Positions 1,504-28,097 of a stretch of 64,000 nt of DNA are shown one piece after another. The position numbers and the translations under genes were made by a program. Under the pieces are notes generated by a model that saw nothing but the letters and a program-made list of their open reading frames with translations, was not told the DNA's origin and searched no databases. Each line of letters begins with the position of its first letter. Position 1 is the stretch's first letter. The stretch spans positions 62,001 through 126,000 of the forward strand of contig NZ_FOXB01000004.1 in the NCBI RefSeq assembly GCF_900115615.1, written 5' to 3'. Source of the DNA: Hydrogenimonas thermophila. GTDB taxonomy: Bacteria > Campylobacterota > Campylobacteria > Campylobacterales > Hydrogenimonadaceae.

Positions 1504-1710
1504 ATGCAAACAATCCAGATAGAGATAGAAGATCCACTATATAAAGAGATAGTAAAAAAAGGCATTGATATTAAAAAAGAGCTAGAGGAAAATATCCGTA
1601 AAATTGTTTATGCCAAAGAGTATAAAATGGCAGAAGAGATCAAAACATCATTGCAAGATTTAAAAGAGGGTAAGTCAAGACCATTGAGTGAGTTTTTAGA
1701 TGAGATTTGA
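1504..1710 (+). CDS. Antitoxin of a RelE/ParE-type toxin-antitoxin pair
   Basis: 68 residues, AAGGAGGAG ribosome site. The N-terminus (MQTIQIEIEDPLYKEIVKKG) can form the beta strand and helix of a ribbon-helix-helix-like DNA-binding region, and the charged C-terminal half (KSRPLSEFLDEI) would wrap the toxin. The gene overlaps the downstream toxin by 11 bp, the usual sign of coupled translation. Family unassigned beyond antitoxin. Likely autoregulated through the palindrome at 1453-1470. It would stabilise the element in its host. Confidence 0.75.
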   Translation: MQTIQIEIEDPLYKEIVKKGIDIKKELEENIRKIVYAKEYKMAEEIKTSLQDLKEGKSRPLSEFLDEI

Positions 1711-2029
1711 AACTCTTCCGTTATTTGAAAAACAGGTTAAAAGACTTTTGAAAAAATATCCACACATAAAAGAGGATATAAAAAACTTTGCTAATGATTT
1801 TACTGAACTGCACCAGAAAGCAACTCCTATTAAGAAGAGTATCTTTAAAGTTAGAATAGCAAACAGTGATAAAAACAAAGGTAAGAGATCAGGTTATAGA
1901 GTTTACTACTATTATAAAGTTGATGATGTTGTTTATTTGCTAAACATCTATGATAAATCTAAGATAGAGATGATAGATGAAAAGATTGTATTTGAAGAGA
2001 TAGAAAAATTTTTAGATAAAGAGTATTGA
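1700..2029 (+). CDS. RelE/ParE superfamily toxin
   Basis: 109 residues. FETLPLFEKQVKRLLKKYP at the start, the central basic strand region (SIFKVRIANSDKNKGKRSGY, then RVYYYYKVDDVVYLLNIYDK) and the C-terminal helix fit the RelE/ParE toxin fold, whose members cleave mRNA at the ribosome or poison gyrase. The sequence alone does not say which activity it has. Translation starts inside the antitoxin gene. Its position in the region predicted to enter recipients first suits a stabilisation module. Confidence 0.8.
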   Translation: MRFETLPLFEKQVKRLLKKYPHIKEDIKNFANDFTELHQKATPIKKSIFKVRIANSDKNKGKRSGYRVYYYYKVDDVVYLLNIYDKSKIEMIDEKIVFEEIEKFLDKEY

Positions 2030-2184: not shown

Positions 2185-2224
2185 AGTCATAGACACCTTA
2201 CGCAAGCTTTGCTTGCTCAGGTGT
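2185..2224 (-). other. oriT: Candidate origin of transfer (oriT) with nic site
   Basis: Two nested inverted repeats: outer ACACCT (2193-2198) / AGGTGT (2219-2224) and inner GCAAGC (2202-2207) / GCTTGC (2211-2216) around a 3-nt loop. Read on the minus strand, the inner hairpin is followed by GTAAGG and then TGTCT|ATGAC. The R388 origin recognised by TrwC, as I recall it, has the same layout: hairpin, GTAT, TGTCT|ATAG. The element encodes a TrwC-like relaxase. The predicted nick lies between 2191 and 2190 on the minus strand, so the region to the left would enter the recipient first and the tra genes last. Confidence 0.5.
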
Positions 2225-2339: not shown

Positions 2340-2369
2340 CTTGAAAGCGATTTTAAAAAATTAGCATTG

Positions 2370-2559
2370 TCAAGAACTAGTCAAGAATTAATCAAGAGCT
2401 AATCAGGAACGATGCAGAATTATCAAGAACTAATCAAGAATTACACAGAATAATCAAGAATTAGTCAAGAACCAATCAAGAACGATACAGAATAATCAAG
2501 AATTAGTCAAGAACTAATCAGGAATTTATCAAGAATGATATAGAATGTTCAAGAATAAA
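2370..2559. repeat. Array of 11-bp direct repeats (TCAAGAACTAA type), centromere- or iteron-like
   Basis: About 13 copies of an 11-bp unit (consensus TCAAGAAYTAR) lie head to tail over 190 bp; at intervals a 9-bp variant of the ACAGAATAA kind replaces one unit (four times). One unit per helical turn places all copies on the same DNA face. The array lies between the oriT candidate and the TraK/ParA-like operon. Its likely ligand is the HTH protein at 2605, giving either a relaxosome enhancer or a partition centromere. Confidence 0.8.
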
Positions 2560-2604
2560 GATATGTATTGATTATAAATAAAAAAGTAGTTAGGAGTTAA
2601 AAAA

Positions 2605-3285: not shown

Positions 3286-4092
3286 ATGACACTTGTAGTT
3301 GCAAATACAAAAGGCGGAGTAGGTAAATCTATTATTTCTCACATGGTTTTACCAGTTCTTTTTTTAGAGGATGATAAGACGATCAATGTTTATGAAATTG
3401 ATGATAACAATCGCACTTCTTTAAAAAAGAATAGCGATAATCTAAACTTCAAGTCAATCAAAATAAAAGAAATGGAAGATGATATAGACAATGTAAAGAT
3501 GGATACCATTATAAATGATGATAGTATAGTTAATATAATTGATTGTGGTGGTGGCAACGACACAATTGCAATTCTAAATCATCTTGCAAAAAGTGATATG
3601 TATGGTTTAGTTTATATTGTACCAGTCAATGATGATATTGAACAGTTTGAAAATACTAAACAAACTATTGATTTGATCTATTCCAATGATAAAGAGGCAA
3701 GAATTTTTCTTATATTTAACCGAGCTCATTCAATCGATTTTCAAGATGTAAAGCAGCAGTTTATTGCTTTTTTTGGCTCAACACAATATGGCATTGAAGG
3801 TAGAATGAAAGATATTGAAGAGCGGATAGAGTCTGAATTTGTATTAAGAGATTCGCAGATTTATGGCATTTTAAAAAATATTTACAAAGTAACTTTGGCA
3901 GATGAGTATCCAAAACTTAAATACACAGTCGAAAAATCACGCGAGTTGCAAGAAGAATGGGCAAGACAAGCAAAAGAACAGGGGAGAGATTATTTTAAAA
4001 AGAAAATGAGTTATCTAAGATTTGCAAAGGATGTTTTAGATCTAGTAGATGAAATCAAGCCTCTGAAAAACATGATCGAAAGGATAGATTGA
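3286..4092 (+). CDS. ParA/TraL-like ATPase
   Basis: 268 residues, AAAGGAG ribosome site. The deviant Walker A motif KGGVGKS lies at residues 9-15 (TKGGVGKSIISHMVL), and VNIIDCGGGNDTIAIL is the Walker B region. Family members are P-loop ATPases that position DNA or protein cargo; IncP TraL is such a protein of about 240 residues. The C-terminal part is rich in charged helices. The gene has its own promoter motif and shares one base with the next gene (TGATG). Whether it serves transfer or partition cannot be told from sequence. Confidence 0.8.
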   Translation: MTLVVANTKGGVGKSIISHMVLPVLFLEDDKTINVYEIDDNNRTSLKKNSDNLNFKSIKIKEMEDDIDNVKMDTIINDDSIVNIIDCGGGNDTIAILNHLAKSDMYGLVYIVPVNDDIEQFENTKQTIDLIYSNDKEARIFLIFNRAHSIDFQDVKQQFIAFFGSTQYGIEGRMKDIEERIESEFVLRDSQIYGILKNIYKVTLADEYPKLKYTVEKSRELQEEWARQAKEQGRDYFKKKMSYLRFAKDVLDLVDEIKPLKNMIERID

Positions 4093-5998: not shown

Positions 5999-6805
5999 AT
6001 GAAAATTAAAACTTTAGTTGTTGCTATTTTTATAGCATTTATTGTTGATAGTGCCAACGCATATTTAGAAGATATTCCGTCCATGCGTAAAGTTGGTAAT
6101 GCAGAAAGGGGATATAAGACTTTTATGGACGCTGGCTGTATAGGTTGTCATAGTGTAAAATCAACTGGTTTATCTGCAACAATGAAGCCTACAGAAGCTG
6201 CAGAATTATTAGGTGCTAATCCACCAGACTTAAGTAATGTAGGTTCAATTTTTGATTCTCATTTTTTAGCTGCATTTATTAAAAATCCAGCTCATGCTTT
6301 GAAAGTTGAGCATAAATTTACTGGTAAAAAAAAGTATCCATATCCAATGGTGCCGTTTCGTAGTATTAATGGCGACCTTGACCAAGAAGTTGCAGATATT
6401 GTAGCCTATTTAAAATATATTGCTAAAAAACCAGAAAATATTACTCCTAAAATGGCATTTGAAACAGCATGTGGACGTTGCCATTCGTTAAGAACTTTTA
6501 ATTGGACACAAATTGGCAAAAAGCCTAAATTTAACAAAAGAAGTAGAGAGCTTTCATTTGAATTAAAGGTAGCTGAATATCAAGAATATTTAGCTGAATA
6601 CCTTAGTAAATTACCGCCAGACCTTTCAGAGATAGCTCAAAAAAGGCAAAAAGAATATTTAAAACAATTGATTAAAGATCCTCAATCAAAAATACCAGGT
6701 ACTGCAATGCCACGTGTTGGAGTGACAGAAGAAATGATTAATAAAATAATTCAATACTTGTTTGAAGCGTCTTTTTCTAAAAATTTTAATCTACACGTAA
6801 AATAG
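5999..6805 (+). CDS. Dihaem cytochrome c resembling the cytochrome c1 (PetC) subunit of Campylobacterota
   Basis: 268 residues with a signal peptide (MKIKTLVVAIFIAFIVDSAN). Haem sites are C47-IG-C50-H51 and C158-GR-C161-H162; methionines in YPMVPF and GTAMPRVG are candidate sixth ligands. The order and wording (NPPDLSNVG, then LAAFIKNP; LPPDLSEIA, then LKQLIKDP) resemble the dihaem PetC of the epsilonproteobacterial bc1 complex. Unlike that subunit it shows no C-terminal membrane anchor, so it would be a soluble periplasmic electron carrier. A respiratory cytochrome is unexpected cargo between transfer genes. Confidence 0.75.
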   Translation: MKIKTLVVAIFIAFIVDSANAYLEDIPSMRKVGNAERGYKTFMDAGCIGCHSVKSTGLSATMKPTEAAELLGANPPDLSNVGSIFDSHFLAAFIKNPAHALKVEHKFTGKKKYPYPMVPFRSINGDLDQEVADIVAYLKYIAKKPENITPKMAFETACGRCHSLRTFNWTQIGKKPKFNKRSRELSFELKVAEYQEYLAEYLSKLPPDLSEIAQKRQKEYLKQLIKDPQSKIPGTAMPRVGVTEEMINKIIQYLFEASFSKNFNLHVK

Positions 6806-6810
6806 TAAAA

Positions 6811-6846
6811 AAGTAGGAAGAAAATTAATCTTCCTGCTTTTCTCTT
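6811..6846 (+). terminator. Intrinsic terminator after the dihaem cytochrome gene
   Basis: AAGTAGGAAG (6811-6820) pairs with CTTCCTGCTT (6830-6839, one G-U pair), followed by TTCTCTTTT. Confidence 0.8.
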
Positions 6847-6885
6847 TTAATAAATAAATCTTCCAAAAACTAACTACTCCAAAAA

Positions 6886-6900
6886 ATATGTATATAGATA
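6886..6900 (+). promoter_or_regulatory. Type copy of the element-wide promoter-like motif AWATATGTATATAGA
   Basis: ATATGTATATAGATA after an A-tract, 30-44 bp before ATG 6930. Close copies precede other element genes: about 2561, 3241, 10,559, 11,915, 13,233, 13,356, 18,050, 18,104 and 23,130. Campylobacterota sigma70 promoters often lack a -35 box and rely on AT-tracts with a TATA-like -10, so TATATA may be the -10. The conservation outside the hexamer is stronger than expected for that alone and suggests a dedicated activator or common descent of the cassettes. Confidence 0.6.
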
Positions 6901-6929
6901 TAACCAGATTCAAATCAAAGGAGTAGATT

Positions 6930-7775
6930 ATGAAAAAAATGTTATTTGTTAGTGGAGTAGTTGCTATTTTGTTGAATGGATGTGCTGTTGTTAATGATAT
7001 TCCAAGCCCAAAAGAGCTTTATACAAAAGCTTTTTATGCAGATAAAATAGATCCAACAGACATAAAAGCTTATGATGAATCTCATTATAAACAAGATGTA
7101 TTGTTTGCTATGCCAAACGCTCATACTTATCAAGAAGCTTTGCAACAATATAAACAATTGCTTTCTTCTGCAAGACCTATTTTTAATCGAAGATCTGCTG
7201 TGCTTGCAAAAAAATTAAATACTCGTTACCGTTCTGTTGGTGGGATGAGTTGTGAGTATTTTAAAACTTGGATTAATTATGATAAAGGCTTACCAGTTTT
7301 TGTTATGAAGCATGAGCTAGGACAAAATGTAGAATGTGTTCCTGTCAACTACAGATCTGATTCAGGCTACAATAGACTAGATCCTAAACAACAAATGGGA
7401 TTTTTATTTATAGACCCAAGTAAAAAAACAATTTACAGTGATAGAAATGCAGTTTTTGTAAAGTTTAAACCAAAAAAGATCGGTGATACTTATTACCTAG
7501 TTTTGGATGATACAAACATAAAAAATAGAAGCATATTATCGGAAGCAACGATGGTTGTTGCCAGTGGTGGTGATGTAATCATGAATGGCCAGTTTTTTAT
7601 GGACAATGATGAGCTGATGGAGCTTGTAAATTTAAGTTTCTTTGATGCACTTAGACAAAATGAAAAACATGCAGAAAATTTTGTTAATATACAAACAGGA
7701 AATGACTTAAATTATGTAGATTCTAGATCAGAATATTATCGACAAAAATATCTTGAATCTTTGAAAAATAAATGA
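6930..7775 (+). CDS. Predicted lipoprotein of unknown function
   Basis: 281 residues, AAAGGAG ribosome site. The signal ends in a lipobox (LLNGC, Cys18), predicting attachment to the outer membrane. The rest is a globular domain with two further cysteines (MSCEYF, VECVPV) and no recognised motif. The promoter, leader and first 18 codons resemble those of the beta-propeller lipoprotein gene at 10,600, so the two share a copied expression-and-export cassette. It is followed by a duplicated start region leading into the cytochrome fusion gene. Confidence 0.8.
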   Translation: MKKMLFVSGVVAILLNGCAVVNDIPSPKELYTKAFYADKIDPTDIKAYDESHYKQDVLFAMPNAHTYQEALQQYKQLLSSARPIFNRRSAVLAKKLNTRYRSVGGMSCEYFKTWINYDKGLPVFVMKHELGQNVECVPVNYRSDSGYNRLDPKQQMGFLFIDPSKKTIYSDRNAVFVKFKPKKIGDTYYLVLDDTNIKNRSILSEATMVVASGGDVIMNGQFFMDNDELMELVNLSFFDALRQNEKHAENFVNIQTGNDLNYVDSRSEYYRQKYLESLKNK

Positions 7776-7853
7776 AAGGCAAACTATGAAAAAGATAGTA
7801 GTAATGTTAATAATGAAAGGCAAACTATGAAAAAGATAGTAGTAATGTTAATG
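7772..7853 (+). repeat. 41-bp tandem duplication creating a coupled leader ORF
   Basis: 7772-7812 and 7813-7853 are identical except for the last base. Each copy holds AAAGG, a start codon and the first codons of the cytochrome fusion gene. As 41 is not a multiple of 3, the first copy yields a 14-residue ORF (ATG 7786 to TGA 7830) whose stop overlaps the true ATG 7827 (ATGA). Confidence 0.9.
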
Positions 7854-9689
7854 CTGATGGTAATTGGTGCTTTTGCTGAAAATTCTAGCATTTTTAATTA
7901 TGCTGAATATGAAAAAGCTTGCGAACAGGGTGATAGTGTTGCCTGTGTTGTATTGAGTAGTTATGAACTTATCATTAACAAGAATAAAGGTAGTTCTAAT
8001 AAATTAATTTCTAAAGCTTGTTGGAGCGGAGATCCTACTGCTTGCAGTATTATAAAACTTAATACTGGCAGATCATGTGATATTATTGAAGATACTGTAC
8101 TTTGTAATTTAACCAAAGAAGATAAATATTGTAAGTGTTTTTATGATAATTTTGCAAATATTAATTCAAAAGATAATAATTTTGCATTTATTTTAAAATT
8201 TATTTTAAAATTTCCAGTTCAAGTTGAAGATGGCCTGTTTTGGACAGGTGTTGAAATCATTGATTCATCTACTATACTTTTTAACTTTGAACTTAATGAG
8301 CAAACATTACAATTTATTAAAAAAGGGATGAATGAGAATCATTTAAATTGGAATGATGTTAAAAGAATAATTAAAAAAGAGGATTTGCTTAATTTGCAAA
8401 ATAAATTTATTTCAGAATCAGCTCTTGCAACAGGACTTCTGCTTTTTTTGAAAAAGGGAGGGAAAATTAAGTATTTATACAAAGATGAAAAAGGAAATGA
8501 ATTATTTAGTTACTATATAACAAAATACGATTTTGAACATCTTCCTGAACCAGCTTTAGCTAAACAGGCAGCAGCTATTTATGTTACATCAATTGAAAGC
8601 GGACACTATAGTTGTAATACTGAAATTACGAATGGATCAGGTGTTATGAATTGTGGTACTTTTCAAATCAAGTTTAGCTTGAAGACATATGATTATGATT
8701 TAGATAATACAGGTAATAATATTGCTGATTATGTTATTGAAGCTCCTTTTTCATACACACTAAATACACAAATTTCAACTATTTTGAAAAAGCGAGGTTA
8801 TAATATTGGAAGCAATACAAATACAATAACACCATTTGTAAACTATCTAATAGCAGTTATTGATAAATATGCACCAATGCTTTTTATTACTACTAAAAAT
8901 GACAATATTGGACTTCCAAGAAATAGAATGACTAACTCTAATGTTTTTAGATTTAAAAGTAAATTATATAAAGTTGCTGATGTTGCAAGCACTTTAACAA
9001 GATTAGCAAATAATGGTGAAACAGCAAAACTACAAAAGTTAATCGATCTCTTTTTGAGAGATACAATTTTAAAAGACAAACAAAATGAGCAAAATTATAA
9101 AAAAGTTCGTAATCGTAATAATTTAAAAAATACAAGTGTTCCGATTTCATCTTCTGATACTGATGATAATGGTAAATTGATATATTTAAATAAATGTGCA
9201 GGATGTCATGGTATCGATGGTAAAGGTGCTAAAGATAAAATTTCAGCGTATGGTATGAAAGGAGGAGAATATCTTATTAAAGAATTAAGAGATGATCTCA
9301 CAAAATATGGAACTATAGATGGAGTATTGTCAATTATACACAATGGAACCACTGGAGGTTTTGGCTATCCGATGGGTACAATGCCTGGAGGACTTCTTGT
9401 GGATGAAACAGCTGAAGAAGTAGCTAAGTATGTTGCTAACGATATGAAAAGCAAAAAGCCTACTGTATTTGTTCTATGTGCAGGATGTCATGGTGCAGAT
9501 GGTAAAGGTATGGGAGGGATGACCCCAAATCTTACAAAATATGGAACTATAGATGGTGTAGTTGATGCCATCAATCGAGGTAGTAAAATAAATAAATGGG
9601 TACAACCTATGCCATCTTTTAAAAATGAACTTACAGAAAAAGAGAAACGTGACGTTGCTGCTTATGTTCTTACATTTGGTAAAAAATAG
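7827..9689 (+). CDS. Secreted cysteine-rich/Sel1-like and CcoP-like dihaem cytochrome c fusion
   Basis: 620 residues with a signal peptide (MKKIVVMLMLMVIGAFA). Residues about 25-90 carry ACEQGDSVAC and ACWSGDPTAC, the paired-cysteine pattern of Helicobacter cysteine-rich (Sel1-like) repeats. A middle region of about 350 residues is unrecognised. The C-terminus has two cytochrome c domains of the cbb3-oxidase CcoP type: C457-AG-C460-H461 and C551-AG-C554-H555, each followed by a LTKYGTIDGV stretch and a methionine (GTMPGG, QPMPSF). CcoP-like domains carry electrons to oxygen reduction; here, fused to a large exported part, the partner is unknown. A terminator follows. Confidence 0.75.
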   Translation: MKKIVVMLMLMVIGAFAENSSIFNYAEYEKACEQGDSVACVVLSSYELIINKNKGSSNKLISKACWSGDPTACSIIKLNTGRSCDIIEDTVLCNLTKEDKYCKCFYDNFANINSKDNNFAFILKFILKFPVQVEDGLFWTGVEIIDSSTILFNFELNEQTLQFIKKGMNENHLNWNDVKRIIKKEDLLNLQNKFISESALATGLLLFLKKGGKIKYLYKDEKGNELFSYYITKYDFEHLPEPALAKQAAAIYVTSIESGHYSCNTEITNGSGVMNCGTFQIKFSLKTYDYDLDNTGNNIADYVIEAPFSYTLNTQISTILKKRGYNIGSNTNTITPFVNYLIAVIDKYAPMLFITTKNDNIGLPRNRMTNSNVFRFKSKLYKVADVASTLTRLANNGETAKLQKLIDLFLRDTILKDKQNEQNYKKVRNRNNLKNTSVPISSSDTDDNGKLIYLNKCAGCHGIDGKGAKDKISAYGMKGGEYLIKELRDDLTKYGTIDGVLSIIHNGTTGGFGYPMGTMPGGLLVDETAEEVAKYVANDMKSKKPTVFVLCAGCHGADGKGMGGMTPNLTKYGTIDGVVDAINRGSKINKWVQPMPSFKNELTEKEKRDVAAYVLTFGKK

Positions 9690-9693
9690 ATTA

Positions 9694-9725
9694 AAGGGGT
9701 ATAAGCTTTGTAACTTATACCCCTT
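9694..9725 (+). terminator. Strong intrinsic terminator after the cytochrome fusion gene
   Basis: AAGGGGTATAAG (9694-9705) and CTTATACCCCTT (9714-9725) form a perfect 12-bp stem with an 8-nt loop; a T-rich stretch follows only partly (ATATTATAT). Confidence 0.85.
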
Positions 9726-9768
9726 ATATTATATAATCTATGAAAAGACTAAGTAAAGAAAGATAAAA

Positions 9769-10113
9769 ATGATTAAAAAACTGATCACTATTACTGCAAT
9801 AGCATTGTTGCCAAATTTATTCACTGGTTGCTCTTTTGAGTTTCAGTTTAAAGAACAGAATGATACTATAGAGGTTTATGATGATATCGGACTTACAGTT
9901 GGAGTAGAGAAAGCATTTGTGACGGTAATAAGATACAACAAAAGTTTTGAAAGATATTCTGATAAAAAAGATGAACTAATAAAAATAGTAAAAAGCAATT
10001 TGTGTAGTAATCTAGAAAGGCGTGTTTTAATCGACAAATACGATATGAAAATTAAAGCATTTTTGCTCTTTAATGATAGAACTGCTGTTATTACCATTTA
10101 CGATTGTAATTAG
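9769..10113 (+). CDS. Small predicted lipoprotein of unknown function
   Basis: 114 residues. The N-terminal signal ends at LFTGC (lipobox, Cys21). The mature part has two more cysteines (SNLCSNLE, YDCN at the C-terminus) that could form a disulfide. No family recognised. It stands alone between a terminator and a gene-free repeat region, with a weak AAAGAAAG-type ribosome site. Confidence 0.65.
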   Translation: MIKKLITITAIALLPNLFTGCSFEFQFKEQNDTIEVYDDIGLTVGVEKAFVTVIRYNKSFERYSDKKDELIKIVKSNLCSNLERRVLIDKYDMKIKAFLLFNDRTAVITIYDCN

Positions 10114-10202
10114 AAAAGAAAAAATAGATTAAGAAACAATATAATAAATTAACTCCCCAAAAACTTTCATTTTCTTCTAGTATTACTTAAAATGTATTTT
10201 GT

Positions 10203-10301
10203 GTGTATCTAAACAATGGTTAATGTGTATCTAAGTAGTTGCTAGTGTGTAGTTAATGTGTGCTTTATGTGTAGTTAAGTAGTTAGTAAGTAGTTATACA
10301 A
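10203..10301. repeat. Second array of 11-bp phased repeats (GTGTAGTTAAT type)
   Basis: Nine consecutive 11-bp units start at 10,203, 10,214, 10,225, 10,236, 10,247, 10,258, 10,269, 10,280 and 10,291; five begin GTGT and most contain TAA near the end. The unit differs in sequence from the 2370-2559 array but has the same period. It lies in a gene-free stretch of about 485 bp (10,114-10,599). Confidence 0.65.
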
Positions 10302-10350
10302 AGTAATTCCTCAAATTTCCTCTCCAAAACATACAATTTGATATTTCTCA

Positions 10351-10392
10351 AGTGCGGTATTTTAAGAAAATAGTGCGGTATTTTGGGAAAAG
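10351..10392. repeat. 21-bp tandem repeat AGTGCGGTATTTTNNGAAAA
   Basis: AGTGCGGTATTTTAAGAAAA and AGTGCGGTATTTTGGGAAAA follow each other with period 21 (two helical turns). A third, more distant relative (GCGGCACTTTGGGAAAA) is at about 10,529. Probable protein-binding sites in the gene-free region before the beta-propeller gene. Confidence 0.7.
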
Positions 10393-10558
10393 ATACGATG
10401 CTTTGTAAAGTTTTCCAAATATATCTTGACTTTTTTATTAAATTATTTTGACTAAGTATGATTTTTTCGTAGTTATTTTTACTCAAAATGAATCTTCTGC
10501 AAAGATCTAACTGTTTTTAGAATACATAGCGGCACTTTGGGAAAAACTATCTAACTAA

Positions 10559-10573
10559 ATATGTATATAGATG
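10559..10573 (+). promoter_or_regulatory. Element promoter motif before the beta-propeller gene
   Basis: ATATGTATATAGATG, 27-41 bp before ATG 10,600. It identifies the in-frame ATG at 10,561 as promoter sequence rather than the translation start. Confidence 0.6.
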
Positions 10574-10599
10574 TAACTAATTTTCCAAAGGAGCAGATT

Positions 10600-11886
10600 A
10601 TGAAAAAAACATTTTTGTTGTCGATTGTTGCATCTATTGTGCTGAATGGTTGTAATAGCGATAGTGCTTTGACTACTACAACATCTATTGCAACAACTGA
10701 TCCAATTACAGTAGATGCAGATACTGTACCTCCAGTTATCAAGCTATTAGGTGATAATCCATTGACTGTGATTGTAGGTAGTGACTATGTTGATCCAGGA
10801 GCAACTGCTATCGATAATGTTGATGGTGCTGTTGGTGTTGATATATACAACACTGTTGATACTACCAAAGAGGGTGAATACAGTGTTATATATACTGCAG
10901 CTGATAGCAATAACAATATATCTAAAACAACGCGAACAGTAAAGGTTGTAGCTGCCGAAAACGACACACTCTACAACATTGTTTCTAGTCTGAAGTTAGT
11001 AGGATATGCTTCAGAAATTGCATTATCAAGTGATGGTACAAAGGCATATATAGCTGATGGTGCTAACGGCTTGCAAATAATCGATATTAGCGATCCTACT
11101 AATATTTCTATTATTAACAGTATTAATACAAGTGATGCATCCGCAATTGCATTATCATCTGATGGTGCAAAGGCATATGTAGCTGATGGTACTAACGGTT
11201 TGCAAATAATCGATATTAGCGATCCTGCTAATCTTTCTATTATTGGCAATATAGATTTGCCGGGCAATTTGTCAGGAATTGCATTATCATCTGATGGCAA
11301 CAAAGCATATTTGACTAATACTGTTAACGGTTTGCAAATAATCGATATTAGCGATCCCACTAATCCTTCTATTATTAGTAGTATTGATACTGAACATGCT
11401 TTGGCAATTGCATTATCATCTGATGGTGCAAAGGCATATTTAGCTGATGGTGCTAACGGCTTGCAAATAATCGATATTAGCGATCCTGCTAATCTTTCTA
11501 TTATTGGCAGTGTTAATACAAATGATACATACGCAGTTGCATTATCATCTGATGGAACAAAGGCATATTTAGCTGATGGTAGTAATTTACGAATAGTTGA
11601 TGTTAGCAATGCTGCAAATCCTGCAATCATCGGTAACATAAATGCATTAAGTTATATAACTGCAATTGCATTATCATCTGATAACATAGCATATTTAGCT
11701 GACGGCAACAACTTAAGAATAGTTGATATTAGCAATGCTGCAAACCCTGTTGAAATTAAAAACATTAGTATGTCTCCAGAAACACCACTAAGCGTAACCT
11801 TATCAAGTGATGAAACAAAAGTTTTTGCAGGATGTGCTAATTTTGCAGATGAAAATGGCTCACTAAAGATAATCAATCTACCTTAA
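10600..11886 (+). CDS. Surface lipoprotein with DUF5011-like domain and LVIVD beta-propeller repeats
   Basis: 428 residues from ATG 10,600, chosen for its AAAGGAG site and because it starts a lipoprotein signal (MKKTFLLSIVASIVLNGC). After a Thr-rich linker comes an Ig-like domain (VDPGATAIDNVDG, then GEYSVIYTAADSNNN) of the DUF5011 type. From about residue 135 there are six or seven repeats of AIALSSDGAKAYLADG-(ANG)-LQIIDISDP, the LVIVD propeller pattern. Such proteins act at the cell surface in binding or adhesion; the ligand is unknown. The near-identical DNA repeats create long spurious frames on the other strand and could recombine. Confidence 0.85.
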   Translation: MKKTFLLSIVASIVLNGCNSDSALTTTTSIATTDPITVDADTVPPVIKLLGDNPLTVIVGSDYVDPGATAIDNVDGAVGVDIYNTVDTTKEGEYSVIYTAADSNNNISKTTRTVKVVAAENDTLYNIVSSLKLVGYASEIALSSDGTKAYIADGANGLQIIDISDPTNISIINSINTSDASAIALSSDGAKAYVADGTNGLQIIDISDPANLSIIGNIDLPGNLSGIALSSDGNKAYLTNTVNGLQIIDISDPTNPSIISSIDTEHALAIALSSDGAKAYLADGANGLQIIDISDPANLSIIGSVNTNDTYAVALSSDGTKAYLADGSNLRIVDVSNAANPAIIGNINALSYITAIALSSDNIAYLADGNNLRIVDISNAANPVEIKNISMSPETPLSVTLSSDETKVFAGCANFADENGSLKIINLP

Positions 11887-12176: not shown

Positions 12177-12188
12177 GGAGGCTTGAAA

Positions 12189-13220: not shown

Positions 13221-13277
13221 GCAGTTTAAAAAATATGTATATAGATATAGAAAATTAAAAACGAGGAGGAAAACATT

Positions 13278-13352
13278 ATGGAATGGTTTTATCTATCTGT
13301 CTTAGCAGCTGCTGTACTTTTCGGAAGTTGGCTAAAAGCAAAAGGCTTTTAA
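13278..13352 (+). CDS. 24-residue membrane peptide
   Basis: ATG 13,278 follows a strong GAGGAGG site and an upstream promoter motif (13,233). The product is MEWFYLSVLAAAVLFGSWLK followed by AKGF: one hydrophobic span with a basic C-terminus. It is followed at once by another promoter motif (13,356). The dedicated promoter and ribosome site argue for real expression. Function unknown. Confidence 0.55.
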   Translation: MEWFYLSVLAAAVLFGSWLKAKGF

Positions 13353-13420
13353 AAAATATGTATATATACAGAAGAAACAATTCTTCTGTATCCAAAAAAT
13401 TAAAAAACAAAGGAGACAAC

Positions 13421-13762
13421 ATGTTAATCGAAATCAAAAACAAAGAGATGGTTAAACATCTTAAAAAATTGGCAGAGGAAGAGGGAGTTGAAGTAAATGA
13501 CATAGTAAATGATCTATTGGCATTTTCAATGGATAATGCAATCGCAACACTGGCGATGAGAAGAATCGAATACGCGCTGATTAATGAGATCATACCATCT
13601 ATTAAAAGTGCTCAAGTCAACATTTATGCTGCTAGAAACCAAATTACAAACATGCATGCAGATATCTTAGAGGATGCAGACCGTGCATTGGCAATTTCAC
13701 AAGAAGCTGGAAAATTGGGAGAAGAGGTTGTTTTTGATAACAGTGATACTGACGATGAATAA
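13421..13762 (+). CDS. Probable ribbon-helix-helix accessory DNA-binding protein
   Basis: 113 residues from ATG 13,421 (AAAGGAG site, promoter motif at 13,356; the longer frame from 13,283 overlaps the previous gene and lacks a ribosome site). The start MLIEIKNKEMVKHLKKLAEE followed by GVEVNDIVNDLLAFSM fits strand-helix-helix of the Arc/MetJ class, as in TraY/TrwA accessory proteins that help relaxases. The rest is helical with an acidic tail. It precedes the mobilization genes by one gene, which supports a relaxosome role. Confidence 0.5.
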   Translation: MLIEIKNKEMVKHLKKLAEEEGVEVNDIVNDLLAFSMDNAIATLAMRRIEYALINEIIPSIKSAQVNIYAARNQITNMHADILEDADRALAISQEAGKLGEEVVFDNSDTDDE

Positions 13763-13775
13763 AAAGAGGTGAGTC

Positions 13776-15617: not shown

Positions 15618-17486
15618 ATGCATAAAATAGAAGATAAAATCAGATCGGCAGCAAAAACAGGTCTAGATCGTTCACTCGATAATAATCGATATCGTGCAAT
15701 GGAGAAGATCGAACACGAAACGCAGATGCGTTTGAAGGCTTTTGCTATTGAAAACGGGGTGTATTTAGCCCCGTTGTTAGTTTTAAATTTTGGATACTTT
15801 ATTTATGCAATATATCAAAATTCAATGTTGCCATACGGACAAGATTATCCAATTTTTTCATTTACTTTCTTATCTGTTTTTTTTATATCTATAGTATTGA
15901 CTTTTTTAAATTTAAAAGTTGTAAAACCTCTAATCTCTTCTAAAATTGAAAAACAGCAAGAAGAGCTTACAGAAGATGTTTATGTAAGTGGTAACAAGCT
16001 TATTAAGACGAAAGAGTTTAATAAACATATCGATAATTTTATTAAAGCAGAGTACAAAATCTCAGGTGATGAACGGGTAAAAGAACACTTTATTATCGAT
16101 ACTATCGAACTTGCGAATGATGATAAACAGTTTGAAAAAGATCCAGAAGCTATTAAATTGCCTAGAATTGCACTTTCAACTGGACTTTGTATATCGGGTG
16201 CGCCTGGCAAAGGTAAATCTGTTTTAATTAATCAAATAATTAAGCAGATACCAGATCATAACAATGTAAAAACCGTAATAATAGACGTAAAAGGTGAGTT
16301 CGTAGAGAAATTTTATAATCCAGATACAGATATTATCATATGCCCATCTGATCTAAGATCTTCAAAATTCTCTCTTTATAAGCTCATAAAAACCAAAATT
16401 GACACAGGTTCAATAGCTGAAATTCTAGTGCCAGACGACAAAAGCAGTCAAGATCCGCACTGGGTTAATGCTGCAAGAGCGGTAGTGGAGGGGTTATTAC
16501 TCTATGCTGCTAAAAATGAACTAAGTAATGAAGAGATCTATGAAACTCTTTCAAACTTAGAATTGTTGATGAAAATAAAAGATGACAGTGAAGTTTTTCC
16601 AATCGTAGCTAATTTCCTAAGAGTAGACAATAATGGAAATCCATCTAAAGAGAGTGAATCTATCATCTCAACCGCTATCAGAAAAGCTAAAGCATTGCAG
16701 TATTTAGCTTATTTAGATGACCTTGAAACTGAAGAAATCGAGTTTAAAAGATGGTTGAAAAATGGCAAGAGTGGAAAGCTATTTTTGCTATCAACTGAAA
16801 ACCTTAGTAAAGTTTTTGCACCGCTTTATGGAGTTATCACGAGCTATTTAATTTCTACAATCCTTGATGATAGAGACGATCTAAACCGTGATATTTACTT
16901 TATATTAGACGAGTTGCCACGACTTGGAAAAGCACTTGGTGAAAACCTTGAAAAAGGGCTTGCAGTAGGACGCTCAAAAGGTTTAAAATTTGTCATGGCA
17001 ATCCAAAATTTCGATCAGCTCAAAAAAGAGTTTGGTGATAAAGAAGCAGACGCGATCTTTGGAACTACTAACAGCTACATAGTTTTTCAAAATTTTTACG
17101 GAGCTCAATTTTTAGAAAAGTTGTTTGGCAAAACTACAGTCATAAAAAATAGTGAAAGTATCTCTTTCAGTGCCGAACCGATGGGAGATAGAATTACTGT
17201 AAGTCGGAGAGAACAGACGGAAGCACTTATAAATGACGCTAAAATTCAAAGGCTTGAAAAATTTGAATTTTTTGCAAAAATCGAGGGTAGTAAAGATGTG
17301 CTTAAAGCTAAGTTAGCACCAAAATTCATTAAGGGCAAAAAGGCAGAGCGATATTGTGAAAACCCTAAAATGTATATTCGCAATATGGAAGCAGATCGAG
17401 AGAGACGAATCAAAAAAATCAAAAACAGATTTGTTAATCTTGAAAATGCAAAATATAGAACAGGCTCAATTAAAGTCGAATTCTAA
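15618..17486 (+). CDS. Type IV coupling protein, VirD4/TrwB/TraD type
   Basis: 622 residues. Two membrane spans (about 46-66 and 79-100) precede a cytoplasmic motor domain with Walker A GAPGKGKS (about residues 194-201) and Walker B IYFILDELPRLG (about 424-435), then RSKGLKFVMAIQNFDQLKKE, which is characteristic of this family. It links the relaxase-DNA complex to the mating channel and pumps DNA. Together with a TrwC-like relaxase it forms a MobF-type transfer set. The gene ends the operon starting near 13,421 and is followed by a hairpin. Confidence 0.92.
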   Translation: MHKIEDKIRSAAKTGLDRSLDNNRYRAMEKIEHETQMRLKAFAIENGVYLAPLLVLNFGYFIYAIYQNSMLPYGQDYPIFSFTFLSVFFISIVLTFLNLKVVKPLISSKIEKQQEELTEDVYVSGNKLIKTKEFNKHIDNFIKAEYKISGDERVKEHFIIDTIELANDDKQFEKDPEAIKLPRIALSTGLCISGAPGKGKSVLINQIIKQIPDHNNVKTVIIDVKGEFVEKFYNPDTDIIICPSDLRSSKFSLYKLIKTKIDTGSIAEILVPDDKSSQDPHWVNAARAVVEGLLLYAAKNELSNEEIYETLSNLELLMKIKDDSEVFPIVANFLRVDNNGNPSKESESIISTAIRKAKALQYLAYLDDLETEEIEFKRWLKNGKSGKLFLLSTENLSKVFAPLYGVITSYLISTILDDRDDLNRDIYFILDELPRLGKALGENLEKGLAVGRSKGLKFVMAIQNFDQLKKEFGDKEADAIFGTTNSYIVFQNFYGAQFLEKLFGKTTVIKNSESISFSAEPMGDRITVSRREQTEALINDAKIQRLEKFEFFAKIEGSKDVLKAKLAPKFIKGKKAERYCENPKMYIRNMEADRERRIKKIKNRFVNLENAKYRTGSIKVEF

Positions 17487-17492
17487 TCCTCA

Positions 17493-17514: not shown

Positions 17515-17524
17515 AAAAGCAGAA

Positions 17525-19040: not shown

Positions 19041-19199
19041 ATGGAAAATACTAAACAAAACAAAGATACAAAAAGAGATTATTTTCTCTTTAATAGCGTG
19101 GACGAATATTTAAACTATTTATATCAGCTACATGAAAATACAGGCCAGAATAAAAAGGAAAACTACTCTAAAAAAGAAGAAAAAAAGGCTTTAAAATGA
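19041..19199 (+). CDS. Small charged protein coupled to the relaxase gene
   Basis: 52 residues from ATG 19,041, after AAAGGAAC. The stop TGA overlaps the relaxase ATG (ATGA), implying translational coupling. FLFNSVDEYLNYLYQLHENT is a probable helix, and the C-terminus is very Lys/Glu-rich. The longer upstream frame overlaps the beta-barrel gene and terminator and is not credible. It may be a relaxase accessory factor. Confidence 0.6.
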   Translation: MENTKQNKDTKRDYFLFNSVDEYLNYLYQLHENTGQNKKENYSKKEEKKALK

Positions 19200-22100
19200 T
19201 ATCTACTCCTACATGGATTAATGCAAAATCAGCTTTACAATATCACGCAGATCAAAAGGACAACTACTATCAGAAAGAGGGCGATCTTGGCACTTGGCAA
19301 GGCAAAGGGGCAGAGGCATTAGGTTTTGCAGATGGAGAGGTCATTACCAAAGAGGATTTAGAGAAAGTCCTTTTTGGTAAAGATAAAGAGGGTAATCAAG
19401 TCCAAAAAACAAGATTAGATAAAGAGGGAGACCGTGCACGAGCAGGGCTTGATCTAACTTTTTCAGCTCCAAAATCTTTATCAATTGCTTATGAAGCTGC
19501 ACAGGCTTATGGTGATAAAGATGCAGCAAAAGCAATTAGGGAAGCTCATGAGAAAGCAGTTACAAAAGTTTTACAAAAAATTGAAGATAACTATGCTCAA
19601 ACCAGACTTACAGAAGATGGAATAACACGAAGAGTTGATACTAATAATTTAGTAATCGCTAAATTTACGCATGAAGTAGCAAGACCAGTAAGCGATGGTA
19701 ACAGTGTAACAGTTGATCCATCTTTGCATACTCATGCAGTAGTTATGAATATGACGCAAACTGAAAATGGAGAATGGAGAGCAATAGAGAGTAAAGCCAT
19801 CTTTCAAAACTACATCAAACTTGGCATGAACTATCGAACAGAGCTTGCAGCAAATCTTAAAGAGCTTGGTTTTGACATCCGAATTATAGACGCTAAAAAG
19901 GGCTTTTTTGAACTTAAAAATGTAGATGACAAAGTGATTGATGAATTTTCCAAAAGAAGCGAACAGTTAGATAAATTAACCAATGAACTAAAAGAGCAAT
20001 ATCCTAATAAAAGCGAAAATGAAATAAAGCAAATGGCAACTTGGAAAAGCCGAGAGTGGAAAGGTGAAATAGACAGAAAAGCAGTTTTGGAAGATAATAA
20101 AAGCAGATTAGAAAGTATAGGTTATAGCAAAGAAGATATTTTACAGCGAAATGAGCCTAAAGAACTTACAGATGAAGAAAAAGAGACATTAAAACAACAA
20201 CAAAAGGGAATTGCAAATAAAGCAATAACCAACGCTATTGAAGCAGTATCAAGTCAAGACAGTGTATTTACATCTGAAGATATTTTGGAAAAGGCGGGAA
20301 AATTTGCACTTAAAGATCAACTACCCTTAGACGCACTTAATAAAGCACTTGATAGAAACAAAGAACTTATTAAGCTAACCGATAACTACTACACCACAAA
20401 AGAGATTATCAAATCCGAAAAGAGCCTTATAAAAGCAGTTAAAGATAAAAAACACAAAGTTGCATCTGTTTTTACCCAGAAAGAAGCAAAAGAAGCTATT
20501 AAAGAATATTCAAGCCAAAAAGAAGAACAAACAGGTTACGGATTAACTGCAGGACAAAAGAGAGCAGCTGCACATATATTAAGTAAAAAAGACCTAGTTA
20601 TCGGCATTCAGGGCGACGCAGGAACAGGTAAAACGACAATGCTAAAAGCAGTTAACGAGCTTGTAGGTAATACAAAATTAATAGGACTATCTTATACCGG
20701 TAAAGCAGCAAGTGAGATCCAAAAAGCCACAGCCAGCAAAGAGGCTTTTAATAAAGCAGGGATACAAAGTCAAACGATAGCAAGGTTTTTATCTAAAGTT
20801 GACAAATTAGACGAAGCGGAACTTGTAGCATATAAAAACTCTAAATTGATAGTTGATGAAGCAAGTATGCTTGGAACTAAAGACGCTAAAAAGCTGATAG
20901 ATTTTGCAAAAAGAGTAGATGCACAAGTTGTTTTAATTGGTGATGTTAAGCAGCTAAAAGCAATTAATGCAGGATCTCCATTTGAACTATTGCAAGAAAA
21001 TGGAATGAAAACAGCGGTAATGTCAGAAGTGCTTAGACAAAAGGACGCTACATTAAAAGAAGCAGTAAGCCACTTGAACAACTATGACAGTGGAAAAGCG
21101 TTTGATGTACTTGATAAAAACGGACTTATAAAAGAAACTGAAAACGGTATAGAAGATGTAAAAAAAGAGTTTTTTAAATTTGATGACAAAGAAAATACGC
21201 AAGCAGTAGTATCTGGTAAAGAGAGCTACCGAGATAGTATTATTCTAACCAATACGAACAAACTCAAAGAAGAGCTTAATAATACGATTAGAGAAGAGCT
21301 TAAAGATAGAGGTGAAATAGGGAAAGAGGATTTTACATTTACAGTTAGAGAATCAGCCAGATTAAGACCGAGTGAAGTATATTTATCTGAAAGCTATAAA
21401 ACGGGTAATTCAATATTTATTCAAAAGAGCATTGATGATTCAATAAAAGCAGGTGAAGAATTTGAAATTATAGATGTAAACAATGAAAAAAATAGTATCA
21501 CTATTTCAAATAGTAAAGGTGATTTTAAACGAACTCTAAATCTTTCAAAATATGGAAATCACTTACAACAATATCAAGAACAGCAAAAAGATTTTTCAAT
21601 CGGTGAAAAGATAGTTTTTGAAAAGAACGATAAAAAGCTTGGAGTAAGTAACGGAGAGACCGCAATTATCCAAAATATCGATAAAGAGGGTAATTTAACA
21701 GTTGCAAAAGACGGACAGGAACTACAATTCAATATCAATAATTACAGTTACATAAATCACGGTTACGCTATCACTACTCATAAGAGCCAGGGGCAAACCG
21801 CTAAAAATGTAGTTGCATATATGGATAGTAAGATCCAAAATTTCAACTCTTTTTATGTAAGTGTAACCAGAGCAACAGACAATCTAAAAATCTATACTGA
21901 TAGTAAAGAGGATCTTAAAAAGTTTGTAGAGGTAGAACAAGAAAAGCTTAACGCAGTTCAGGCAGTAGAGAAATTAGCTAACAAAGAGGAAGAGTGGGGC
22001 AAAGAACAGGCAAATAAGATACCCGCAACACCTAAACAGCTACAAACCGCTAACAATATAGCAAAAGCCCTAAATTTAGAGTTTAACGAGACTTCAAAGT

Positions 22101-23125
22101 TTGCAACGGGGGAGTTCATAGAAGCTAATATTAAAGAGTATAAAAACTATTTAATGCAACAACCGGCAAGCGATAAACAGTTAGATTTTGCTAACAAAAT
22201 ATCTAAAACATTGGGGGTTGAGTTTAATGGAAACACCAGGGCAGAAACCAAAGAGTTTTTAGATAAATACAGCAAGGATTTTACAGAGTTTTTGAATGAT
22301 AGAACAGGCTATTTGATAAAAACAGATCCAAATAACCTAAACCAAAACGAAAAAGAAGAATACTATCAAAAGTATTATCATGAAATTAGTAGAAATATCG
22401 CTAAACAAGACATTAACAACATAGATCGACTATATGAACATCTTGAAAAAACAGACCCAGAAGAGCTTAATACAATTGGAAAAGGCATTAAGCTAGAGAG
22501 CTATAAAAAAGCTTTTAGGGTTACTAATAAAGAGATAGTAAACAAGCTAGCCGAAAAATATTTTGGAGATGATTCATTTTTAAAAGATGTTTATGCTAAA
22601 AAACCGCTTGAACTTGCAAAAGAATTAAATAATAATGGGATAGATTACAAACACGAAAAAGAGCTTGCAAAAGCGGATCTAATAGCTGAAAAATACGATG
22701 AGTACATAACCGATAAAATGGTAAACGCAAATGATGAAAAAGAGTTTAACGAGCTTTTAAAAAAAGAGCAAAATTTCAAAGAGTTTATAGATGATTACAA
22801 ACAAGAAAAACAAGACGAACACGACTATGATAAATTGATTGATAAAATAGATGAGCATATGCAAAATAAAGATCCTTACAGTGCTGCAAAACTGATAGAA
22901 GAGAATAAATATGTATTGAAAGAAGAAGATCTGGAGATAATGCAAATGCAGCTTGACAAAACTTTTGATGAGGCGATGGAGATGGAAACACCTAGAATTG
23001 AAAAACAGCTTAAGCAAGAAAAGAAGTATTGGAGTAGGGAAAATGAGAGCTTTTATAATGCTATAGCGGAAAATAAGGATAGCGAAAAACAAGAAGTTGT
23101 AGAGGATAATACGAATAGTAGATGA
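19196..23125 (+). CDS. MobF relaxase-helicase, TrwC/TraI type
   Basis: 1309 residues. N-terminal relaxase domain: candidate catalytic tyrosines Y16 and Y24/Y25 (QYHADQKDNYYQKEGDLGTW), motif LDLTFSAPKSLS, a FTHE histidine, and metal ligands around H178-T-H180 (DPSLHTHAVVMN), all close to TrwC of R388 as I remember it. The helicase domain has Walker A GDAGTGKTT (about 472-480), DEASMLG, and the late motif AITTHKSQGQTAKNV. The C-terminal 350 residues are helical and unassigned; the family is usually about 970-1750 long. It nicks oriT and unwinds DNA for transfer. Confidence 0.93.
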   Translation: MISTPTWINAKSALQYHADQKDNYYQKEGDLGTWQGKGAEALGFADGEVITKEDLEKVLFGKDKEGNQVQKTRLDKEGDRARAGLDLTFSAPKSLSIAYEAAQAYGDKDAAKAIREAHEKAVTKVLQKIEDNYAQTRLTEDGITRRVDTNNLVIAKFTHEVARPVSDGNSVTVDPSLHTHAVVMNMTQTENGEWRAIESKAIFQNYIKLGMNYRTELAANLKELGFDIRIIDAKKGFFELKNVDDKVIDEFSKRSEQLDKLTNELKEQYPNKSENEIKQMATWKSREWKGEIDRKAVLEDNKSRLESIGYSKEDILQRNEPKELTDEEKETLKQQQKGIANKAITNAIEAVSSQDSVFTSEDILEKAGKFALKDQLPLDALNKALDRNKELIKLTDNYYTTKEIIKSEKSLIKAVKDKKHKVASVFTQKEAKEAIKEYSSQKEEQTGYGLTAGQKRAAAHILSKKDLVIGIQGDAGTGKTTMLKAVNELVGNTKLIGLSYTGKAASEIQKATASKEAFNKAGIQSQTIARFLSKVDKLDEAELVAYKNSKLIVDEASMLGTKDAKKLIDFAKRVDAQVVLIGDVKQLKAINAGSPFELLQENGMKTAVMSEVLRQKDATLKEAVSHLNNYDSGKAFDVLDKNGLIKETENGIEDVKKEFFKFDDKENTQAVVSGKESYRDSIILTNTNKLKEELNNTIREELKDRGEIGKEDFTFTVRESARLRPSEVYLSESYKTGNSIFIQKSIDDSIKAGEEFEIIDVNNEKNSITISNSKGDFKRTLNLSKYGNHLQQYQEQQKDFSIGEKIVFEKNDKKLGVSNGETAIIQNIDKEGNLTVAKDGQELQFNINNYSYINHGYAITTHKSQGQTAKNVVAYMDSKIQNFNSFYVSVTRATDNLKIYTDSKEDLKKFVEVEQEKLNAVQAVEKLANKEEEWGKEQANKIPATPKQLQTANNIAKALNLEFNETSKFATGEFIEANIKEYKNYLMQQPASDKQLDFANKISKTLGVEFNGNTRAETKEFLDKYSKDFTEFLNDRTGYLIKTDPNNLNQNEKEEYYQKYYHEISRNIAKQDINNIDRLYEHLEKTDPEELNTIGKGIKLESYKKAFRVTNKEIVNKLAEKYFGDDSFLKDVYAKKPLELAKELNNNGIDYKHEKELAKADLIAEKYDEYITDKMVNANDEKEFNELLKKEQNFKEFIDDYKQEKQDEHDYDKLIDKIDEHMQNKDPYSAAKLIEENKYVLKEEDLEIMQMQLDKTFDEAMEMETPRIEKQLKQEKKYWSRENESFYNAIAENKDSEKQEVVEDNTNSR

Positions 23126-26737: not shown

Positions 26738-27937
26738 GTGAGTCGTAGAAAAGGTTGTGCATACATCTGGGAAAGAAAAGATACCCGTGTTCTTTGGCTT
26801 TGTAGATATGTTAACAAGAAGCCTGTTCGAGTAAGCACTGGATTGCCAGATACAAAACAAAACCGCTTATTTTTAAACCGTAATGCTGAATCTGAATTTT
26901 GGCGTATTGCACTTGAACAAGGTAAAGTAGAACCAGATCAAATACCAAATAATTCATCTTTATCTATTATTATGCAGCAAGATCCAGCTATGCCAAAACT
27001 AAGAGAGTATGGCGAGTATACTTTAAATGCTACATTATCAGGTAGATCAACAAAAACTCAACAAGACGTTAAAAAGAAGTTTAACCGTATTTGTCTATAT
27101 TTTGGAGATGAAACGCCTATAAATTCAATTACAGCTACAATGATAGCAGAATGGCAAACTAAGCTTAGCCAGGGTAAAGTCTCTTATCAAAATGGAAAGC
27201 CATACTCAAATAAAACAATTATAAATTATCGTTCAGTTTTAAACACTATATTGAGTGCAGCAGTAGATGATGGATTAATACAACGCAATCCGATGGAGTC
27301 AAGAATAGCTAAAGCCCCACGGATTATTAAAAAAATTCCAACCGTCTATTCACTTGAAGAGATTCGAGCTTTACTTGAATCTTGTCGTCATTATGCCAAA
27401 AATGCACGCAATTTTCAAACCGAGTGGGCATGGAAACAGATGTTTTATATGCTAAAGCTTGGTTTTTTTACAGGGTTGCGGTCAGGAGAGCTAATAGCTC
27501 TGCAATGGCATGACATCAACTTTGATCAAAATTACATCCATGTCCAAAGGCGAATAAGAGATGGTGATGAAGATTTACCAAAAGGCTATAAAAAACGTTT
27601 TGTTGATTTATTGCCACAAGCAAAAGAGGTACTAAAAACTCAACAGTTGCTTACAGGACTTAAAAGTAAGTGGGTATGGCTAACTTATCAAGGCAATCCT
27701 TATTCATCTACTGATAGCTTGGATGAAATGTTTAAAAAGGCTTGCAGACATGCAGGTGTAAAAGTTGGTAAATTTTATAATATGCGTCATAGCTTTGCTA
27801 CATTGATGATAGAAAATGGAATGAGTGAAAGTTGGCTTATTCAAAATACTGGGCATGTTGATATATCAACAACCAGAGATTATTATTTTGGTAAAATAAA
27901 GCCTAATTTAGATGCAATTAATAAGCTTGTTGTATAG
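26738..27937 (+). CDS. int: Tyrosine recombinase (integrase) of the element
   Basis: 399 residues from GTG 26,738 (AGAAAGGA site). An N-terminal arm-binding region, a SAM-like core-binding domain (about 85-190) and the catalytic domain are visible: R248 in GLRSGEL, box II YNMRHSFAT with R350, TGH before the end, and the nucleophile in TTRDYYFG (Y382 or Y383). The usual first His of the H-x-x-R box is Tyr (Y347) here, a variant seen in some families. It reads towards the tRNA-Ser 3' end 70 bp away, which marks that tRNA as its attachment site. Confidence 0.93.
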   Translation: MSRRKGCAYIWERKDTRVLWLCRYVNKKPVRVSTGLPDTKQNRLFLNRNAESEFWRIALEQGKVEPDQIPNNSSLSIIMQQDPAMPKLREYGEYTLNATLSGRSTKTQQDVKKKFNRICLYFGDETPINSITATMIAEWQTKLSQGKVSYQNGKPYSNKTIINYRSVLNTILSAAVDDGLIQRNPMESRIAKAPRIIKKIPTVYSLEEIRALLESCRHYAKNARNFQTEWAWKQMFYMLKLGFFTGLRSGELIALQWHDINFDQNYIHVQRRIRDGDEDLPKGYKKRFVDLLPQAKEVLKTQQLLTGLKSKWVWLTYQGNPYSSTDSLDEMFKKACRHAGVKVGKFYNMRHSFATLMIENGMSESWLIQNTGHVDISTTRDYYFGKIKPNLDAINKLVV

Positions 27938-28006: not shown

Positions 28007-28097
28007 TGGCGGACAGGGAGGGATTCGAACCCTCGGTACCCGCAAAGGTACGCACCCTTAGCAGGGGTGTGGTTTCAGCCAGCTCACCCACCTGTCC
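28007..28097 (-). tRNA. tRNA-Ser (anticodon GCT), element attachment site
   Basis: Read on the minus strand: acceptor GGACAGG (28,097-28,091) pairs with CCTGTCC (28,017-28,011), discriminator G and encoded CCA (28,009-28,007). The anticodon loop reads CTGCTAA, and GGTTCGAATCC is the T-arm. The long variable arm is typical of serine tRNAs. The 3' end faces the integrase, so the tRNA remains whole and the element lies on its 3' side. Confidence 0.95.

What the first reader, a model, noticed from the sequence alone, without database searches (positions are those of the whole stretch)
2185..2224. oriT candidate with an R388-like hairpin and nic context
Seen: on the minus strand, a GCAAGC-AAA-GCTTGC hairpin is followed by GTAAGG and TGTCTATGAC, with an outer repeat ACACCT/AGGTGT. 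Known (from memory): R388 oriT, cut by TrwC, has a hairpin followed by GTAT and TGTCT|ATAG. The element carries a TrwC-like relaxase. Inference: nick between 2191 and 2190 on the minus strand, with the toxin-antitoxin side entering first.
Basis: partly seen in the sequence, partly recalled or inferred. Interest (0 to 1): 0.75.

Follow-up and report, generated by a model that had tools for sequence, protein, structure and literature searches.

The report
Transfer origin of a mobile island
This short DNA hairpin is very probably the place where a 36-kb mobile element of a Campylobacterota-type bacterium is cut to start its transfer to other cells; it is a new example of a known kind of site, but in this element and three relatives it faces the opposite way from usual and the exact cutting point may be shifted by two bases.

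Summary
The hairpin and nic-like string are real and exactly where reported. The site is very probably the oriT of a 36.2-kb tRNA-Ser island that carries a MobF (TrwC/TraI) relaxase. The strongest evidence is comparative. In the three closest relaxase relatives with a readable flank (70%, 59%, 55% identity) the same core, TTGCG[TA]A[AT]GGTGTCTA, lies next to the StbA-like gene, on the opposite strand. In the closest relative the hairpin keeps its pairing with changed bases (GCAAGC/GCTTGC versus GCAAC/GTTGC). More distant Campylobacterota MobF elements carry hairpin + GTNNGGTST near their relaxase or ParA/StbA genes. In 64 kb this is the only strong hairpin+MobF-motif hit. Beside it lie 11-bp-spaced repeats, a StbA-like gene and a StbB-like ParA gene, as at R388 oriT.

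The nick is not settled: MobF rules (9 nt after the hairpin, GTGT at 22-25) give 2193/2192; the R388-like TGTCT|A gives 2191/2190. Unlike R388, the nic strand points away from the repeats and stb genes in all four clade members, which also lack the TrwC residues that read G17 and T18. No VirB4-type ATPase was found, so the element looks mobilizable rather than self-transmissible.

The parts
2219..2224 (-). distal outer repeat ACACCT, complementary to AGGTGT
   Evidence: sequence; ACACC conserved in 4 of 4 clade members
2202..2216 (-). hairpin GCAAGC-AAA-GCTTGC; 2202-2207 is the proximal arm next to nic
   Evidence: counterpart GCAAC-GAA-GTTGC in G511 keeps pairing with other bases; the hairpin itself is absent in G078 and G149, which keep TTGC
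2193..2201 (-). GTAAGGTGT, the 9-nt region between hairpin and nic (positions 17-25 in R388 TrwC numbering)
   Evidence: matches the MobF consensus G17 T18 NN [G/T]21 G22 T23 G24 T25 (PMC4176350)
2192..2193 (-). predicted nick, reading 1: GGTGT|CTA (5' end at 2192)
   Evidence: 9-nt spacing as in R388, F and about ten other elements; inference
   Evidence: R388 TGTCT|A identity, +1 purine, clade conservation ends here; inference
2367..2563 (.). about 13 copies of an 11-bp-spaced repeat (A/G)TCAAGAA(C/T), like R388 stbDRs; probable binding sites of the StbA-like protein
   Evidence: (lag-11 z = 5.0); R388 stbDRs PMC3098194
2605..3237 (+). StbA/TraK-like DNA-binding protein (DUF5338-like N-terminus)
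   Evidence: Pfam PF17273 E 4e-4, below the curated cut-off; hhalign to R388/R46/NAH7 StbA over 69 N-terminal columns, probability 57%, E 1e-4; conserved next to oriT in G511, G078, G149
3286..4092 (+). StbB-like ParA-family ATPase
   Evidence: NCBIfam best hit StbB NF041292 E 4.4e-8, below its cut-off; 61% identical in G511
15618..17486 (+). TrwB/TraD-type coupling protein
   Evidence: PF10412 1.5e-60; TraD_Ftype 2.6e-51
19196..23125 (+). MobF relaxase-helicase (TrwC/TraI type), the enzyme expected to cut this site
   Evidence: PF08751 8e-73; MobF NF041492 above cut-off; Y18, Y26, H150, H161, H163 (TrwC numbering) all present
26738..27937 (+). tyrosine integrase of the element
   Evidence: PF00589 1.4e-21
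28007..28034 (.). att core: 28 bp of the tRNA-Ser 3' end; second copy at window coordinate -8155 (contig C4:53845), giving a 36.2-kb element
1504..2029 (+). toxin-antitoxin-like pair on the predicted leading side
   Evidence: toxin: TIGR02683 RelE/ParE E 0.003, weak

Best explanation
This is the origin of transfer (oriT) of a 36-kb tRNA-Ser-integrated mobilizable element. After excision and circularisation by the integrase, the element's MobF relaxase (19196-23125) binds the proximal hairpin arm (2202-2207) and the adjacent GTAAGGTGT on the minus strand, cuts it within GGTGT|CT|A (2193/2192 or 2191/2190) and stays on the 5' end. The strand runs into the recipient toward lower coordinates: toxin-antitoxin and left-end cargo first; integrase and the relaxase and coupling-protein genes later; stb genes and repeats last. 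The nested hairpin helps rejoin the ends in the recipient. The StbA-like protein bound to the 11-bp repeats, with the StbB-like ATPase, balances maintenance and presentation of the element for transfer. Shown: sequence, conservation, gene content, att sites. Inferred: cleavage, nick position, protein-DNA contacts, transfer.
For: (1) The core TTGCGTAAGGTGTCTA occurs with 0-1 mismatches next to the StbA-like gene, on the strand opposite to it, in G078, G149 and G511; at most 1 of 3000 shuffles matches as well. (2) In G511 the hairpin is kept with other bases. (3) About ten further Campylobacterota MobF elements have a hairpin followed at once by GTNNGGTST on the strand opposite to the relaxase gene, in the intergenic region next to ParA/StbA or upstream of the relaxase. 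(4) Agreement with the R388 and F sites, confirmed in the R388 and F records, and with published MobF rules. (5) The MobF relaxase has all catalytic residues. (6) 11-bp repeats plus StbA-like and StbB-like genes, as beside R388 oriT. (7) It is the only strong candidate in the window.
Against: No cleavage or transfer data. G078 and G149 lack the inner hairpin; they have the proximal arm and a stem formed by the outer repeat. The sequence after the nick does not match R388 or F. The site points away from the repeats and stb genes, unlike R388. A plus-strand reading exists (GCTTGC TCAGGTGT|AAT), although only AGGTGT of it is conserved in all four. No VirB4-type ATPase was found in the genome, so transfer would need a helper. 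StbA similarity is weak.
Confidence: 0.88

Rival explanations
1. It is the oriT, but the cut is on the plus strand: hairpin, TCAGGTGT|AATCG, so that the stb genes enter first as in R388.
For: Plus strand GCTTGC-TCAGGTGT|AAT (window) and GTTGC-TTAGGTGT|AAT (G511) resemble GTCAGGTGT|A of G454 and G364, have a +1 purine, and would face the repeats as in R388, R46 and the G261 group.
Against: Spacing would be 8 nt and G17 is lost. In G078 and G149 the plus strand reads CGCAAGGTGT|TG without a matching hairpin. Across the four clade members only AGGTGT is conserved on this strand, against 14 of 16 positions on the minus strand.
Confidence: 0.08
2. It is a regulatory or replication palindrome (operator, terminator or partition site) of the adjacent genes and not an oriT.
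For: It lies between two gene sets beside partition-type genes and repeats.
Against: No T-run follows the stem on either strand; the conserved core is asymmetric (TTGCG..A.GGTGTCTA) and matches the MobF nic rules; matching sites lie beside MobF relaxases in distant elements.
Confidence: 0.04

Closest known systems
R388 oriT (IncW, MobF11; TrwC, stbABC)
   Same: Hairpin then TGCGTA, TGTCTA string, 11-bp-spaced repeats, StbA-like and StbB-like genes adjacent, TrwC-type relaxase.
   Different: Nine-nt region GTAAGGTGT instead of GTATTGTCT; TGTCTA lies 2 nt further out; nic strand points away from the repeats and stb genes; relaxase lacks Asn182 and Asp183; no TrwA found beside it; integrated element without T4SS genes detected.
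F oriT (TraI) and R46/pKM101 oriT (MobF)
   Same: TGC-GT..GGTGT: F GTGGGGTGT, R46 GTTAGGTGT, window GTAAGGTGT.
   Different: F and R46 have G or A after GGTGT; here CTA. Different accessory genes from F.
Other Campylobacterota MobF elements found here (G261 group, G344, G454, G364, G349, G278, G304)
   Same: Hairpin followed directly by GTNNGGTST, in the intergenic region near StbA-like/ParA genes or upstream of the relaxase.
   Different: Nic strand points toward the repeats and stb genes where these could be placed; most keep Asn182.

Membership tests
MobF (TrwC/TraI) oriT | Inverted repeat 5' of nic on the nicked strand | tested here: met
   GCAAGC-AAA-GCTTGC, -5.8 kcal/mol, z -3.8
MobF (TrwC/TraI) oriT | G17, T18, T23 and GTGT/GTCT at 22-25, nine nt from hairpin to nic | tested here: met
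   GTAAGGTGT under reading 1; not met under reading 2 (11 nt, A17 A18)
MobF (TrwC/TraI) oriT | Purine just 3' of nic (shown for TrwC) | tested here: inconclusive
   C under reading 1, A under reading 2 (PMC4176350)
MobF (TrwC/TraI) oriT | Cognate MobF relaxase in the same element | tested here: met
   NF041492 234 bits against cut-off 100
MobF (TrwC/TraI) oriT | Site conserved beside related relaxases | tested here: met
   3 of 3 close relatives in which the flank could be read; the L025 contig is too short to tell
MobF (TrwC/TraI) oriT | Relaxase cuts the site | not testable with these tools
   needs a cleavage assay
R388 stb-type oriT module | 9-bp repeats with 2-bp spacers (11-bp period) next to stbA | tested here: met
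   lag-11 z 5.0; spacings 11 and 20
R388 stb-type oriT module | StbA homologue | tested here: inconclusive
   hhalign probability 57%, E 1e-4
R388 stb-type oriT module | StbB-type ATPase | tested here: inconclusive
   StbB best hit 4.4e-8, but 32.8 bits against a cut-off of 200
R388 stb-type oriT module | stb operon in the leading region | tested here: not met
   minus-strand nic runs away from repeats and stb in window, G511, G078, G149
Self-transmissible ICE | T4SS with VirB4/TraC ATPase | tested here: not met
   PF03135 and PF19044: none in the genome

The most novel reading that the evidence does not exclude
A MobF clade with a re-set cutting register: the relaxase has lost the TrwC residues that read G17 and T18 (Asn182, Asp183) and cuts GGTGTCT|A, 11 nt instead of 9 nt after the hairpin arm, at an oriT turned round so that the stb genes enter last.
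Probability: 0.4. Interest if true: 0.6.

Novelty: new member of a known kind. Interest (0 to 1): 0.42.

Why it matters
One literature search turned up no MobF transfer origin from this bacterial group. The site, its three close counterparts and about ten more distant ones give ready test substrates for how MobF relaxases read DNA. The clade in which the reading residues and the nic surroundings have both changed is a natural experiment on relaxase specificity. The predicted entry order also says which genes reach a new host first.

Tried and rejected
A DNA search with 2030-2300 found only the window itself beyond chance-level matches. TGCGTANGGTGTCTA hits in five other class genomes and 26 viral contigs lack the ACACC arm and are chance. 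Scans of viral contigs for the relaxase or the full site found none. The region 17,480-18,350 has AT-rich inverted repeats without a MobF nic motif. The exact-shared-word test is decisive for G078 only, so a mismatch-tolerant test was used. A terminator was rejected for lack of a T-run. The search for matching hairpins used a motif that allows what R388 and F show, slightly widened (C at position 25) after seeing G278; the window hit does not depend on that widening.

Full report
Observation. The minus strand from 2224 to 2186 reads ACACCT GA GCAAGC AAA GCTTGC GTA AGGTGT CTATGAC, exactly as reported. It folds as single-stranded DNA into an inner 6-bp stem and an outer 6-bp stem (-10.1 kcal/mol, z -3.6). 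A scan for a stem directly followed by a MobF-type nic motif gave two hits in 64 kb. This one is the only strong hit (6 bp, 4 G/C, loop 3), and 60 random sequences gave none of that strength. The string TGTCTATGAC alone would not be convincing.

The element. The window lies in contig C4 of a 92-contig, 2.44-Mb genome. An integrase (26738-27937) borders tRNA-Ser (28007-28097). A 28-bp copy of the tRNA 3' end lies at window coordinate -8155, so the element is about 36.2 kb. It carries a MobF relaxase-helicase (closest solved structures TrwC and pCU1 TraI) and a TrwB/TraD coupling protein. It also carries a DUF5338-like gene, a ParA-family gene whose best NCBIfam match is StbB, a DnaB-like helicase, and cargo that includes a BsuBI/PstI-type restriction-modification pair. 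No VirB4-type ATPase was found in this genome or in G078, G149 and G344 with two models, nor in G511 with one. The element is therefore probably mobilizable with a helper, or uses an unrecognised channel.

Conservation. The closest relaxases with readable flanks are G511 (70% over the relaxase domain), G078 (59%) and G149 (55%). Beside their StbA-like genes, and on the strand opposite to those genes, stand: G078 AACACCTTGCGTAAGGTGTCTAAG; G149 CAACACCTTGCGTATGGTGTCTAAC; G511 TTACACCTAAGCAACGAAGTTGCGAAAGGTGTCTAACG. Against the window core TTGCGTAAGGTGTCTA they have 0, 1 and 1 mismatches; 0, 1 and 0 of 3000 shuffles do as well. In G511 the relaxase and the site are on different contigs, but the StbA-like gene and repeats lie beside the site. 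G511 keeps the inner hairpin with different paired bases. G078 and G149 keep only the proximal arm TTGC and the outer ACACC/GGTGT repeat. In TrwC the distal arm is much less constrained than the proximal arm (PMC4176350).

Wider family. Around the relaxases of more distant Campylobacterota elements a hairpin is followed at once by: G261 group GTTGGGTGT|G, G344 GTCAGGTGT|G, G454 GTCAGGTGT|A, G364 GTCAGGTGT|A, G349 GTCGGGTGT|G, G304 GTATGGTCT|G, G278 GTTTGGTGC|C. R388 is GTATTGTCT|A and F GTGGGGTGT|G; both sequences were confirmed in their records, while the F nick position is from memory. R46/pKM101 contains TGC-GTTAGGTGT-ATAGC. [quoted passage not shown]

Nick position. Under reading 1, GTAAGGTGT|CTA (2193/2192), spacing and positions 17-25 fit the MobF rules, but +1 is C. 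Under reading 2, GGTGTCT|A (2191/2190), 21-26 equal R388 TGTCT|A and conservation in the clade ends at that A, but the spacing is 11 nt and 17-18 are A A. The TrwC residues that contact T18 and G17 (Asn182, Asp183) are N and D in R388, R46, NAH7, the G261 group and G304. They are S-K, A-K, T-G and T-Q in the window, G511, G078 and G149. That change weakens the argument from G17/T18, so I leave the two readings at roughly even odds.

Strand and direction. The minus-strand core is conserved at 14 of 16 positions in all four clade members, while the plus-strand alternative shares only AGGTGT. With the minus strand cut, transfer proceeds to lower coordinates: toxin-antitoxin, left cargo, then through the joined ends to the integrase, relaxase and coupling-protein genes, with ParA, the StbA-like gene and repeats last. 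In R388 the nic faces the stbDRs and stbA. In R46 and the G261 group the predicted site also faces them. The window clade is the reverse in four of four.

Accessory module. Repeats 2367-2563 have an 11-bp period (lag-11 z 5.0), as do R388 (5.8) and R46 (7.8). G078 and G149 do not show a clear 11-bp period in the same test. The StbA-like family aligns weakly with R388/R46/NAH7 StbA over the N-terminal 69 columns (probability 57%, E 1e-4). In R388, StbA binds such repeats and StbB is needed for transfer (PMC3098194). The same roles here are inference.

Verdict. The exact nick and its reversed orientation are the open and testable points.

Noticed in passing
L101:5861-7576 and L101:10294-12147 (G511): The closest relative encodes two TrwB-type coupling proteins near one MobF relaxase.
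   Followed up: partly
window 12183-15404; L101:3877-4908, 8540-10268: Conserved proteins without any convincing family match (g12183, g13283, g13776) travel with TrwB and TrwC in window and G511, and at least in part in G078 and G149; possible transfer-channel or surface proteins.
   Followed up: no
window coordinates -8051 and 27939 (24 bp, TTTTATACACAGTTTATACACAGT): A second direct repeat just inside both att ends; possible integrase arm sites.
   Followed up: no
window about -4460 to 95 (L024:5538-10095); L126:7210-11743: A cassette of PAPS-reductase/DUF3440, small protein, ParB_N and SNF2-type helicase is shared between the window element and G511 but at different places relative to oriT.
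   Followed up: partly
window 5999-11886: Two cytochrome c proteins and an LVIVD beta-propeller protein lie between the stb-like genes and the coupling protein.
   Followed up: no
window 62001-63300: G+C rises to 0.42 with no ORF of 80 aa before 63304; an rRNA operon would fit, not checked.
   Followed up: no
L039 (G278), L093-L095: Other elements that lack Asn182 also have off-consensus sites (G278 GTTTGGTGC|C; G141a/G200/G354 ATTGGTGC or ATTGGTAC), a possible relaxase-nic co-change.
   Followed up: partly
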